From NCBI GenBank assembly GCA_944322305.1, contig CALUOP010000002.1, positions 186,001 through 250,000 of the forward strand: a stretch of DNA of 64,000 nucleotides. The letters are read 5' to 3'. The position numbers were made by a program, and so were the translations under genes. Below are positions 1 through 32,034 of the stretch, piece after piece (the stretch's first letter is position 1; each line of letters opens with the position of its first letter). The stretch is from an uncultured Coriobacteriaceae bacterium. Its GTDB lineage: Bacteria > Actinomycetota > Coriobacteriia > Coriobacteriales > Coriobacteriaceae. A model generated the notes under the pieces. It ran no database searches. It was given only the letters and a program-made list of their open reading frames with translations, and was not told where the DNA came from.

Positions 1-214
1 CGGTGCGGGCGTTGACTTTCACGACTACGACATCGTGGTGGTGAAGATGGGCTACCTGGACACCTACCTCATCCCCGAGACCGCCTACCACACCATGGCA
101 CTCACCGGCGGGCCGACGATCCAGCGCTCCGAGCACATTCCGTTCAAGCGCATCTTCCGCCCGATGTGGCCCGTGGACGAGATGGACGAGCTTATGTATA
201 TAGAGCGCTGCTAG
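1..214 (+). CDS. M81 family (MlrC-like) metallopeptidase, C-terminal fragment
   Basis: Only the last 70 codons are in the window; the reading frame enters at base 2 and ends at TAG 212-214. The visible protein contains DIVVVKMGYL and ends with FKRIFRPMWPVDEMDEL. This resembles the C-terminal domain of MlrC-type zinc peptidases, where a buried VVVK strand is followed by an RPxxPxD motif. These proteins were named for microcystin-linear peptide degradation, but most homologues have unknown substrates. The metal-binding half lies upstream of the window, so catalytic residues cannot be checked. The family call rests on a short tail. The gene is followed by the repeat array at 223-431. Confidence 0.55.
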   Translation, partial: GAGVDFHDYDIVVVKMGYLDTYLIPETAYHTMALTGGPTIQRSEHIPFKRIFRPMWPVDEMDELMYIERC

Positions 215-440
215 GACGCGCCGCATGCAGGTTGCTCCACACGCAGCGTTGCGCATGCGGCCGAGAAGCACCCGAAGTTCCGCATGCACCTCGTCTCACG
301 AAGTGCGTTGCGCATGCAAATTGCTCCATACGCGGGGTTGCGCATGCACGTTGTTTCTCTAAAACGCCGTTTTCGGGTTGTAGCTGATACGGTTTGCATG
401 CGCAGCGTTGGAGGGTAAACGGTTTGCATGCGGAACACGC
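215..440. repeat. 30-bp-phased GCATGC array (array A)
   Basis: The 364-bp gap before pcrA (215-578) carries seven GCATGC palindromes at 223, 253, 282, 312, 342, 396 and 426, so the spacing is 30, 29, 30, 30, 54 and 30. The left five mostly read GTTGCGCATGC; the right two read GCATGCG with the flank inverted. The pairs 342/396 and 312/426 are equidistant from a centre near 371, next to an AAAAC-GCC-GTTTT stem. The DNA between the cores is not conserved. No ORF with a ribosome-binding site is present. The rest of the gap holds the pcrA promoter. Confidence 0.8.
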
Positions 441-578: not shown

Positions 579-3446
579 ATGCACGACATGCCTTGGGAGA
601 ACAACGCACACGCGGCCGCCGCTGCCGCAGGACAGGCGCCGCAGCCTCAGATGCCGCAGCAACCTGCGATGCCGCTGGCGTGGGACACCCCGGCGTCCGC
701 GTCTGCGCCGGCACCTGCACCCGCGGCGCGCCCGGAGGCCGCCGCGCCCCGTCCCGCCTGGCAGCCGCCGACGTTTCCTCCGCTTGACCTGGAGGGTCTG
801 AACCCGGCTCAGCGCGAGGCCGTCGAGACCACCGAGGGCCCGCTTTTGGTGCTTGCCGGCGCGGGCTCGGGCAAAACGCGCGTGCTGACCTACCGCATCG
901 CCCACATCGTGCGCGACCTCGACGTGCGCTCGTGGCGCATCTTGGCCATCACCTTCACCAACAAGGCCGCAGCCGAGATGCGCGAGCGCCTGCAGGCGCT
1001 GCTGCCCGGCGGCACGCGCGGCATGTGGGTGTGCACCTTCCATGCCATGTGCGTGCGCATCCTGCGCGAGGACGCCGACCTTCTCGGCTACACCGGCCAG
1101 TTCACCATCTACGATGACGACGATTCCCGCCGCATGGTGCGCGACATCATGAGCGCGCTCGGCATCGAGCAGAAGCAGTTCCCCGTGAACATGATCCGCA
1201 GTCGCATCAGCTCGGCCAAAAACGCCATGATCGGCCCGGACGAGTTCCAGCGCATGGCTTCCACGCCGCCCGAGCAGAAGGCCGCCCAGGTCTACCAGGA
1301 GCTCGAGCGCCGCCTGCGCGCCGCCAACGCCATGGACTTCGACGACCTGCTCGTGCGCGCGCTGGAGCTTCTGCGCACCCGCCCCGAGGTTCTCGAAAAG
1401 TACCAGGACCGCTTCCGCTACATCAGCGTGGACGAGTACCAGGACACCAACCACGTGCAGTACGAGATCGCCAACCTGCTCGCCGCCAAGCACCAGAATC
1501 TCATGGTGGTGGGCGACGACGACCAGTCCATTTACAGCTGGCGCGGCGCTGACATCTCCAACATCCTCGACTTCGAGAAGGACTTCCCCGCCGCACGCGT
1601 GGTCAAGCTCGAGCAGAACTACCGCTCGACCGGCCACATCCTGGCGGCGGCCAACGCCGTGGTGGCCAACAACAGCCGGCGCAAGGAGAAGCGCCTGTTC
1701 ACCGCGGCCGGCGACGGCGAGAAGATCCAGGCCTACCAGGCAAGCGACGAGCGGGACGAGGGCCGCTGGATCGCCGCCGAGATCGAGAAGCTCGTGCGCG
1801 CCAAGCGCTGTACCTACGACGACGTGGCCGTGTTCTACCGCACCAACGCGCAGTCGCGCATCCTGGAAGACATGTTCCTGCGCGCGGGCGTGCCGTACAA
1901 GATCGTGGGCGGCACGCGCTTCTTCGACCGTGCCGAGATCCGCGACGTCATGGCCTACCTCAAGATGGTGGTGAACCCCGCCGACGAGATGAGCGTCAAG
2001 CGCGTGGTCAACACGCCGCGCCGCGGCATCGGCTCCACCTCCATCGCCAAGATCGAGGGGCTGGCTGCCCAGTACCGCGTGAGCTTCTTCCAAGCCTGCG
2101 AGATGGCAACGGCCGAGACGGGGCTCTTCTCGGCCAAGGTGCGCAACGCCCTGGCCGACTTCACGCAGATCGTGCGCGAGGGGCGCCGGCTCGACGGTGA
2201 GCTCAAGGACGTGGTGGACCGCATCGTCGAGATGAGCGGCCTCATCCGCTCGCTCAAGGCCGAGGGCACGCCCGAGGCCGAGGGCCGCGTGGAGAACATT
2301 CAGGAATTCCTGGGCGTGGCGGCCGAGTTCGAGGAGAGCCACGAGGACATAGAGGGCACGCTGGAGAGCCTGGAGGAGCTGCGAGAGGCCGGCATCGCCG
2401 ATCTGCCTGCCCCGCCATTGGGGACGGGTACCAATGGCGGGTCGGAGAACGCCGGTGAGGGGGCGGAGGCAGGCGATCTGCCATTGGTGCCCGTCCCCAA
2501 TGACAGCGTGGGCGGGTCCGATCCGGTGGAGGCCGCCTACGGCCCGCTGGCCTGCGCCGCGCTCCCGGCGCTGATGGAGTGGCTCGCCCTGCGCTCGGAC
2601 CTAGACGCGCTGGCCGGCCAGACGCAGGCCATCACGATGATGACCGTGCACTCGGCCAAGGGCCTGGAGTTTCCCGTGGTGTTCGTGGCCGGCCTTGAGG
2701 AGGGCATCTTCCCGCACATCGCCGGCTTCGCCGACGACCCCGAGAAGCTGGAGGAGGAGCGGCGCCTGGCGTACGTGGCCATCACGCGCGCCCGCAAGCG
2801 GCTGTTCCTCACCTACGCCGCCACGCGCCGCACCTACGGCTCCACGCAGGCCAACCCGCGCAGCCGCTTTGTGAACGAGATCCCCGAGGAGCACATCGAG
2901 TTCTCGGGCATAGGCTCGGCGGGTTTCGAGGGCACCGGCTGGGAGAAGCGCGGCGACCGCCGCGGCACCTTCGGCAGCGGCCTGGGGTCTGACATGTACG
3001 GCGGGCACGTGTTCGGCTCGCACACGCGCTCTACCGGCGGGTCCGCCTCGGGTTCGACCTTTGGCAGCTCGGGCGGCGTGCGGCGCCACGGCGGCCCGGT
3101 GTCGGCCGAGGCTGGCGGCGGGGCCGTGCGCGGGCGCGGGGCTGCGTCCTCCGAGGGCGTGCGCACCTTCGGCGCGGGCAGCGCGCGCCGGGCTACGGGC
3201 GGCCGCATGAGCGCGGCCGAGGCGCTCGGCATGGCGGGCGGCGGCCACGCGGTCGAGCGGCGCCGCGCCGATCCCGCGCGCGCGGCCGAGACCTTCTCGG
3301 CCGGCGATGCCGTGCGCCACAAGACCTTCGGGCTGGGCGAGGTGCTCTCGGTCTCGGGCGACATGATCGAGGTGCGCTTCGAGAAGAGTGGCCAGACCAA
3401 GAAGCTCATGAAGGGCTTCGCACCTATCGTGAAGATCACGGGATAG
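579..3446 (+). CDS. pcrA: ATP-dependent DNA helicase UvrD/PcrA (SF1A)
   Basis: This is a 955-residue 3'-5' helicase for repair and displacement of protein-DNA roadblocks. The start ATG 579 follows GGGAGA. An Ala/Pro-rich N-terminal tail of about 65 residues precedes the Q motif. Walker A GAGSGKT is at residues 94-100, DEYQD (motif II) near 285, and the motif around VHSAKGLEFPVVF is intact. The C-terminus has a Gly/Ser/Arg-rich linker and a Tudor-like end domain (GDAVRHKTFGLGEV) that in PcrA contacts RNA polymerase. At about residues 612-642, in domain 2B, the frame runs through a palindromic repeat (2412-2504) encoding PLGTGT and PLVPVP. That segment is absent from typical PcrA, so it looks like an in-frame insertion. 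Family call is firm. Confidence 0.95.
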   Translation: MHDMPWENNAHAAAAAAGQAPQPQMPQQPAMPLAWDTPASASAPAPAPAARPEAAAPRPAWQPPTFPPLDLEGLNPAQREAVETTEGPLLVLAGAGSGKTRVLTYRIAHIVRDLDVRSWRILAITFTNKAAAEMRERLQALLPGGTRGMWVCTFHAMCVRILREDADLLGYTGQFTIYDDDDSRRMVRDIMSALGIEQKQFPVNMIRSRISSAKNAMIGPDEFQRMASTPPEQKAAQVYQELERRLRAANAMDFDDLLVRALELLRTRPEVLEKYQDRFRYISVDEYQDTNHVQYEIANLLAAKHQNLMVVGDDDQSIYSWRGADISNILDFEKDFPAARVVKLEQNYRSTGHILAAANAVVANNSRRKEKRLFTAAGDGEKIQAYQASDERDEGRWIAAEIEKLVRAKRCTYDDVAVFYRTNAQSRILEDMFLRAGVPYKIVGGTRFFDRAEIRDVMAYLKMVVNPADEMSVKRVVNTPRRGIGSTSIAKIEGLAAQYRVSFFQACEMATAETGLFSAKVRNALADFTQIVREGRRLDGELKDVVDRIVEMSGLIRSLKAEGTPEAEGRVENIQEFLGVAAEFEESHEDIEGTLESLEELREAGIADLPAPPLGTGTNGGSENAGEGAEAGDLPLVPVPNDSVGGSDPVEAAYGPLACAALPALMEWLALRSDLDALAGQTQAITMMTVHSAKGLEFPVVFVAGLEEGIFPHIAGFADDPEKLEEERRLAYVAITRARKRLFLTYAATRRTYGSTQANPRSRFVNEIPEEHIEFSGIGSAGFEGTGWEKRGDRRGTFGSGLGSDMYGGHVFGSHTRSTGGSASGSTFGSSGGVRRHGGPVSAEAGGGAVRGRGAASSEGVRTFGAGSARRATGGRMSAAEALGMAGGGHAVERRRADPARAAETFSAGDAVRHKTFGLGEVLSVSGDMIEVRFEKSGQTKKLMKGFAPIVKITG
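2412..2504. repeat. Palindromic element family P, copy 1 (inside pcrA)
   Basis: Inverted arms 2414-2437 and 2479-2502 share the core CATTGGGGACGGG followed by ACCAATGGC, separated by about 40 bp. The same arms recur in intergenic copies at 13908-13979 and 31967-32034. This copy lies within a coding sequence and keeps the frame open. Confidence 0.85.
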
Positions 3447-18528: not shown

Positions 18529-18694
18529 CTTGCGTTCCACTTGCGCATTTGTCTCCCGCTGAAGTTCCGCTTGCACATATTTCACGTACGGATGCTCTGC
18601 TTGCATTTCCTTCCTCTAACAGCCCCTTTTCGGGCCCTAGGGCAACAAGGAATACAAGCGGAGCGTTTTTATCAGCAAGATCTGCTAGCAGAAG
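18529..18694. repeat. 30-bp-phased CTTGC array (array E) in the hypB-topA gap
   Basis: The 353-bp gap 18484-18836 holds no ORF with translation signals. CTTGC cores lie at 18540, 18570 and 18600 (exactly 30 bp apart) with partly conserved flanks. A GCCCC...GGGC stem lies near 18622-18640, and inverted forms follow: ACAAGCGG ending at 18660 and GCTAG ending at 18688. The inner unit pairs well (CTTGCATTTCCTT with AAGGAATACAAG). The remainder holds TTTGCGCAAA and the topA promoter. Confidence 0.65.
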
Positions 18695-18785
18695 TGCCCG
18701 ACGCCGCACGCCCCGCGAGCGCGCGACTTAGCGTGCTGATCGGCGGCGTTTTTGCGCAAACTGCGCAAACCCGCGTCAACTCGCT

Positions 18786-28908: not shown

Positions 28909-28938
28909 GGGCTGGCCGTCTCTTCGATCCGTATGGGG

Positions 28939-29007
28939 GAGGGCCGGCTTCCGATCTTGGATTTCGCCCGTTATCAAAATCCAAGATCGGAGGCCGGCCC
29001 TCTTTTT
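28939..29007 (+). terminator. Strong terminator after tyrS
   Basis: A very long near-perfect stem pairs GAGGGCCGGC and CCGATCTTGGATTT with their complements across a 12-nt loop, and ends in TTTTT (29003-29007). With about 25 paired bases it is longer than needed for termination. Confidence 0.9.
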
Positions 29008-29171
29008 GTAGCGTGAACCGATCGCGCGTTCGCCGGCTCTTGCCAAGCGTGCAGGAGAATCATAGATGGCTGGAGTGCGACGTCTCGGTGCTTGTCCGCG
29101 CGGCGGGGTATGATGAGGCGTAGTGCAAACAGCCGGTGCGGGCTTGCCGTGCCGGTGGGTGAGGAGGGCGT

Positions 29172-31966: not shown

Positions 31967-32034
31967 TGCCATTGGGGACGGGTACAGATGGCACACGCCG
32001 CACGTTCTGCCATCTGTACCCGTCCCCAATGGCA
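31967..32034. repeat. Palindromic element family P, copy 3
   Basis: Perfect 27-bp arms (31967-31993 and 32008-32034) starting TGCCATTGGGGACGGG, with a 14-bp loop. It lies between two minus-strand genes. It is the cleanest of the three copies. Confidence 0.92.

What the first reader, a model, noticed from the sequence alone, without database searches (positions are those of the whole stretch)
223..431. Array A: seven GCATGC palindromes at 30-bp spacing upstream of pcrA
Starts at 223, 253, 282, 312, 342, 396 and 426. The left five have GTTG/GTTC before the core, the right two have the inverted flank. Pairs 342/396 and 312/426 share the centre at 371.5. The array ends about 90 bp before the predicted pcrA promoter.
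Basis: seen in the sequence. Interest (0 to 1): 0.7.

Follow-up and report, generated by a model that had tools for sequence, protein, structure and literature searches.

The report
Scattered palindromic arrays of iterated words
The seven evenly spaced GCATGC sites are one copy of a family of about 14 scattered, hairpin-forming DNA elements in this gut bacterium (about 33 in its nearest relative), usually lying just after genes and apparently multiplying and being rewritten together without the transposase known to spread similar repeats.

Summary
In detail: seven GCATGC cores at the stated positions, far beyond chance. The array is not a pcrA feature. It is one copy of a dispersed family: about 14 intergenic copies in this genome and about 33 in congener G003. 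Each copy is built from 27-30-nt words, forward on the left and inverted on the right. The inner cores are always 54 bp apart; the inner pitch is 30 bp here and 29 bp in G003. The pcrA site is empty in G003. Four GCATGC-type copies at orthologous sites carry lineage-specific words and pitch, so the family evolves in concert. Two other congeners (G001, G002) carry a 104-bp version with different words, 19-bp pitch and the same 54-bp centre. Words co-vary between arms; in G001/G002 the spacers pair less than chance, which points to an imperfect hairpin. Elements sit mostly downstream of genes. The likely behaviour is a REPIN/MITE-like non-autonomous hairpin element. It is not a RAYT REP: single words do not fold, there is no GTAG tag, RAYT loci carry other repeats, and G001/G002 lack any Y1 transposase. 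The mobilising protein is unknown and no target-site duplication could be read. Function is unproven.

The parts
218..436 (.). Array A: quasi-palindromic array of seven words, five forward and two inverted, between an M81 metallopeptidase gene and pcrA
337..406 (+). Inner 70-nt quasi-palindrome, cores 54 bp apart; model R1 69.6 bits (+) and 50.8 bits (-)
307..336 (+). Second left word (core 312), pitch 30
277..306 (+). Third left word (core 282)
248..276 (+). Fourth left word (core 253), pitch 29
218..247 (+). Fifth, outermost left word (core 223), degenerate flank GCGCC
407..436 (-). Outer right word (core 426), ends GCATGCGGAAC
18534..18720 (.). Second member in the window: GCTTGC/GCAAGC subtype (inner hairpin 18594-18664, inner cores 55 bp apart, outer words at pitch 30-31), followed by GTTTTTATC, between a HypB/CobW-type GTPase gene and a topoisomerase gene
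1..213 (+). 3' end of the upstream M81-family metallopeptidase gene (context)
579..3446 (+). pcrA/uvrD helicase gene (context)

Best explanation
Array A is one copy of a dispersed, non-autonomous, hairpin-forming element that behaves like a REPIN or MITE. SHOWN: many copies in two genomes; rigid inner geometry (word, 29-30 bp, word, 54-bp centre, inverted word, 29-30 bp, inverted word); different copy numbers and several sites occupied in one congener and empty in the other; words matching within an element and between its arms; clade-specific words and pitch even at orthologous sites; position mostly downstream of genes. INFERRED: copies arise and are homogenised by a copying process; an unidentified trans-acting protein recognises the words in the folded single-stranded form (helices separated by internal loops); outer words are added by local tandem amplification; the downstream position reflects tolerance there and removal from promoters. 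UNKNOWN: the mobilising or converting protein, target-site duplications, and any benefit to the host.
For: Family in own genome and G003. Centre exactly 54 bp in 42 of 42 GCATGC-type elements; inner pitch 30 in 17/17 (G000) and 29 in 46/50 (G003), while outer pitches wander 28-32. Empty pcrA site in G003; further sites occupied in one genome only. Five sites shared by G000 and G003, four of them with lineage-specific words and pitch. Covariation 0.298 against 0.206 +/- 0.010 shuffled, 0/500 shuffles; G003 inner arms match within an element, p 0.0002. G001/G002 104-bp version with the same 54-bp centre. Four words per element of one subtype, p 0.0002. In G002 two copies in unrelated flanks are 103/104 identical, while the first differs from its G001 orthologue at 7 positions and the G001 orthologue of the second also differs clearly. 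Words pair above chance (P 0.0023) and spacers below chance (P 0.0003) in G001/G002. About 16 of 47 elements between convergent genes, 27 tandem, 3 divergent. Flanking genes are diverse, with no recurring transposase among the families listed.
Against: No mobilising enzyme was found, and no target-site duplication could be read: intergenic flanks of G000 and G003 are too diverged, and the G001 sites that could be placed in G002 look occupied. In G000 alone the arms do not co-vary element by element. The near-identical G002 copies could be an assembly error (G001 contigs break at these repeats). The conservation of the GCTTGC subtype at one orthologous site suggests a host function for at least some copies.
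Confidence: 0.55

Rival explanations
1. Arrays are double-stranded binding sites for a host protein (nucleoid, insulator or regulatory factor) placed at phased positions; the palindrome is a by-product of inverted sites, and the lineage-specific word reflects changed specificity of the protein.
For: Strict inner spacing with less conserved spacers; words in the same arm, which cannot pair with each other, also match within an element; arrays with an unequal number of words per arm; lineage-wide shift of word and pitch at orthologous sites.
Against: Spacers in G001/G002 pair significantly less than chance, which double-stranded binding does not predict; copy number and sites differ between congeners; placement is largely downstream of genes and not in promoters.
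Confidence: 0.2
2. Elements are transcribed as 3'-UTR hairpins acting as terminators, RNase barriers or processing sites for the upstream gene.
For: Downstream placement and enrichment between convergent genes; low folding energy of array A, z -3.2; the GCTTGC subtype is followed by GTTTTTATC and is about as conserved between G000 and G003 as the neighbouring coding DNA, while its left flank drops to 0.42-0.65 identity.
Against: No T run after GCATGC-type hairpins and no terminator-like hit at array A. G-U versus A-C mismatches on the sense strand are 85:70 in tandem contexts, no better than the arbitrary-strand 49:34 at convergent sites, so there is no sign of RNA-sense selection. No Rfam match up to E 1.
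Confidence: 0.18
3. Conventional RAYT-driven REPIN family with an unusual REP.
For: Inverted hairpin-forming words, downstream location and persistence as a population, as described for REPs and REPINs (PMC3116915, PMC3733652, PMC8049555); G000 and G003 each have one Y1_Tnp gene.
Against: Both RAYT genes are flanked by different GGGGACG-type repeats and have no R1 match near them; G001 and G002 have no Y1_Tnp match yet carry the related 104-bp family; single words do not fold and have no GTAG tag.
Confidence: 0.07

Closest known systems
REPINs / REP-BIMEs with RAYT (TnpA-REP)
   Same: Dispersed intergenic palindromes, inverted pairs forming hairpins, often tandem, mostly between convergent or unidirectional genes (PMC3733652, PMC3116915); unpaired bulges in the stem matter in E. 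coli REPs (PMC8266576).
   Different: Single word has no stem of its own, no GTAG tetranucleotide, RAYT loci in G000 and G003 carry other repeats, and G001/G002 lack any Y1 transposase; inner geometry is fixed (54 bp centre, 29-30 bp pitch).
MITEs / long palindromic intergenic repeats such as ERIC (from general knowledge)
   Same: ~105-130-bp quasi-palindromic dispersed element without coding capacity.
   Different: Arms are made of iterated words with variable outer copy number; no target-site duplication or parent transposon found.
CRISPR arrays (from general knowledge)
   Same: About 30-bp periodic repeats.
   Different: Repeats reverse orientation at a centre, most of each repeat unit is itself conserved, and copies are scattered over many loci.

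Membership tests
RAYT-associated REP/REPIN | Each REP is itself a 20-50-nt palindrome | tested here: not met
   Four representative words do not fold better than shuffled sequence
RAYT-associated REP/REPIN | Conserved tetranucleotide (most often GTAG) next to the palindrome | tested here: not met
   Words start GTTC/GTTG; no conserved GTAG tag in the aligned elements
RAYT-associated REP/REPIN | Cognate RAYT gene flanked by the same repeat | tested here: not met
   RAYT loci of G000 and G003 carry GGGGACG-type repeats, no R1 match; no Y1_Tnp match in G001/G002
RAYT-associated REP/REPIN | Two words in inverted orientation forming a hairpin, dispersed between genes | tested here: met
MITE | Terminal inverted repeats | tested here: met
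   GTTCTACGCA...TGCGTAGAAC in the 104-bp version; GTTCC-GCATGC...GCATGC-GGAAC in the GCATGC type
MITE | Target-site duplication | tested here: inconclusive
   No clean empty site with alignable flanks
MITE | Ends shared with an autonomous transposon | tested here: inconclusive
   The GTTCCGCATGCA sites listed for G000 lie in or beside the arrays and the listed flanking-gene families include no transposase; the whole gene content was not searched
Intrinsic terminator | GC-rich hairpin followed by a T run | tested here: not met
   No terminator-like hit at array A; only the GCTTGC subtype is followed by GTTTTTATC
CRISPR | Same-direction repeats with unique spacers and linked cas genes | tested here: not met
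   Orientation reverses at the centre and copies are scattered; no cas family among the flanking-gene families listed

The most novel reading that the evidence does not exclude
A long-lived intragenomic population of hairpin elements that replicates and is homogenised without any RAYT/Y1 transposase, with a conserved 54-bp centre but clade-specific words and pitch (19, 29, 30 bp) that change in concert at orthologous sites, implying an unknown word-recognising copying or conversion enzyme in Coriobacteriaceae. PMC8049555 states that REPINs were, to its authors' knowledge, the only stably maintained intragenomic sequence population in prokaryotes.
Probability: 0.3. Interest if true: 0.7.

Novelty: new variant of a known kind. 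Interest (0 to 1): 0.45.

Why it matters
If right, it is a hairpin-element population like REPINs but with no Y1 transposase in two of the four congeneric genomes examined, so it would point to a different copying or conversion machinery. It also gives a clear natural experiment: words and pitch change in concert while some sites and the 54-bp centre stay. Practically, it means these arrays should not be annotated as pcrA regulatory sites.

Tried and rejected
pcrA operator: array absent in the same gap of G003 and copies lie beside unrelated genes. Known RNA family: no Rfam hit up to E 1. RAYT as mobiliser: see membership test. Target-site duplication: not readable. RNA-sense selection through G-U versus A-C bias: none. 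Covariation on the 12 G000 seeds alone: not above shuffles; it appears with G003 added. Model R2 hits in other genera: some show extra words pointing to the centre (L062, L206, L208, L211, L205, L077), others (G079, G013) are plain palindromes, so family-wide homology of the centre is not claimed, because the search itself selects for that centre. Literature search found nothing on such repeats in Collinsella or Coriobacteria in the open library.

Full report
OBSERVATION. Four, not five, of the left cores carry GTTG/GTTC. The sites are the most conserved part of a ~27-30-nt word.

A DISPERSED FAMILY. Two GCATGC about 30 bp apart occur at many other places in the genome, and reading them shows the same anatomy: words forward on the left, inverted on the right, with a GC-rich AAAA-type loop at the centre. 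A covariance model of the inner 70 nt (R1) finds about 14 elements in G000 and about 33 in congener G003 (both strands score, so match counts are about double). The exact GCATGC pattern is found in only 2 of 396 genomes of the class. The window holds a second member at about 18534-18720, of a GCTTGC/GCAAGC subtype.

GEOMETRY. In GCATGC-type elements the inner cores are 54 bp apart in 42 of 42. The first outward pitch is 30 in 17/17 in G000 and 29 in 46/50 in G003, whereas outer pitches scatter from 28 to 32. A central set of four words is therefore the rigid part; outer words are looser. The detector for outer cores is permissive, so some outer words may be chance.

GAIN, LOSS AND CONCERTED CHANGE. 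The M81-pcrA gap of G003 has no array. Flank comparison places five elements at orthologous sites and several others at sites occupied in one genome only. At the four shared GCATGC-type sites the G000 copy carries the G000 type of word (TATCAG and its degenerate forms) and 30-bp pitch, the G003 copy mostly the G003 type (TATCG or AACG) and 29-bp pitch. Copies therefore turn over or are converted within each lineage. The GCTTGC copy behaves differently: it is about 85% identical across the two genomes, like the neighbouring coding DNA, while its left flank drops to 42-65%.

THE OTHER CONGENERS. G001 and G002 carry a gapless 104-bp version with other words (GTTCTACGCA / CGAACGCTTGACGCA), 19-bp pitch and again 54 bp between inner words. 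Three word subtypes exist (CGATCGCTT, CGAACGCTT, CTAACGCTT), and the four words of an element almost always share one (p 0.0002). In G002 two copies 1064 bp apart in unrelated flanks are 103/104 identical, although the first differs from its G001 orthologue at 7 positions and the G001 copy at the second site also differs clearly. This is what conversion within G002 would give, with the caveat of short-read assembly. The G001 sites that could be placed in G002 look occupied, so no insertion boundary could be read.

STRUCTURE. On 47 elements the proposed helix shows covariation 0.298 against 0.206 +/- 0.010 in shuffles (0/500) and loses it when slid; on the 12 G000-based seeds alone it does not exceed shuffles. 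By region, words pair above chance in G003 and in G001/G002. The spacers of the 104-bp elements pair below chance (11 of 78 against 24.9 expected, P 0.0003), and so does the gap in G000 (P 0.015); in G003 the gap pairs above chance. An imperfect hairpin with internal loops therefore seems to matter, either because the folded strand is recognised or because long perfect palindromes are not tolerated. Words of the same arm also match within an element, so copying of whole elements contributes to the apparent covariation.

PLACEMENT. With a simple codon-usage gene caller, 16 of 47 elements lie between convergent genes, 27 between tandem genes (usually nearer the upstream gene's 3' end), 3 between divergent genes and 1 overlaps a probably false call. 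Subtracting these, other gaps in the same loci have roughly 3 convergent and 12 divergent out of 48. The caller missed a few genes, which moves a handful of cases. This is the placement described for REPs (PMC3733652). Flanking genes are unrelated to each other and the commonest families among them include no transposase.

NOT RAYT REPs. G000 and G003 each hold one Y1 transposase gene, but its flanks carry GGGGACG-type repeats and no R1 match. G001 and G002 have none. Single words do not fold and lack the GTAG tag that marks most REPs (PMC8266576).

VERDICT. The array is a real member of an apparently undescribed, lineage-specific family of quasi-palindromic dispersed elements. It works most like a REPIN or MITE but fails the defining RAYT features and has no demonstrated transposase or target-site duplication. 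Host function is open; the conserved GCTTGC copy is the best candidate for one.

Noticed in passing
window 18534-18720: GCTTGC-subtype element between a HypB/CobW-type GTPase gene and a topoisomerase gene, conserved between G000 and G003 about as well as coding DNA and followed by GTTTTTATC.
   Followed up: partly
window about 31968-32034: Near-perfect palindrome GCCATTGGGGACGGGTACAGATGGCA...TGCCATCTGTACCCGTCCCCAATGGC, resembling the repeat beside the RAYT gene of G003 (L187).
   Followed up: no
window about 28938-29010: Long hairpin (AGGGCCGGC..GATCTTGGATTT...AAATCCAAGATCGG..GCCGGCCCTCT) followed by TTTTTG, terminator-like.
   Followed up: no
L036 (G000:C4:263591-266920): Single Y1 transposase (RAYT-like, 264 aa) flanked by GTTGGGGACGTGTTCC-type repeats unrelated to the GCATGC words.
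   Followed up: partly
L197, L209, L213, L220-L224 (G079): About 12 copies of a ~100-bp near-perfect palindrome (GGGGGTCGGTCATTTCTACTTGCCGTTTCGTTCG...) in one genome of the same family, without iterated words.
   Followed up: no
L055, L059, L062 (G029): Repeats of TTGGGGACGTACCTTCCGCATGCACTTTTGCA, in L062 tandem then inverted, combining the GGGGACG motif seen beside RAYT genes with the GCATGC word.
   Followed up: partly
L072 about 2281-2346, L077 about 2284-2349: In Collinsella tanakaei ET30 and an uncultured Collinsella, a different palindrome (ACCCTAGGGATTATTTTACATGGCGCATG...) lies about 200 bp before the matched pcrA start; in L077 one word copy is repeated 28 bp upstream.
   Followed up: no
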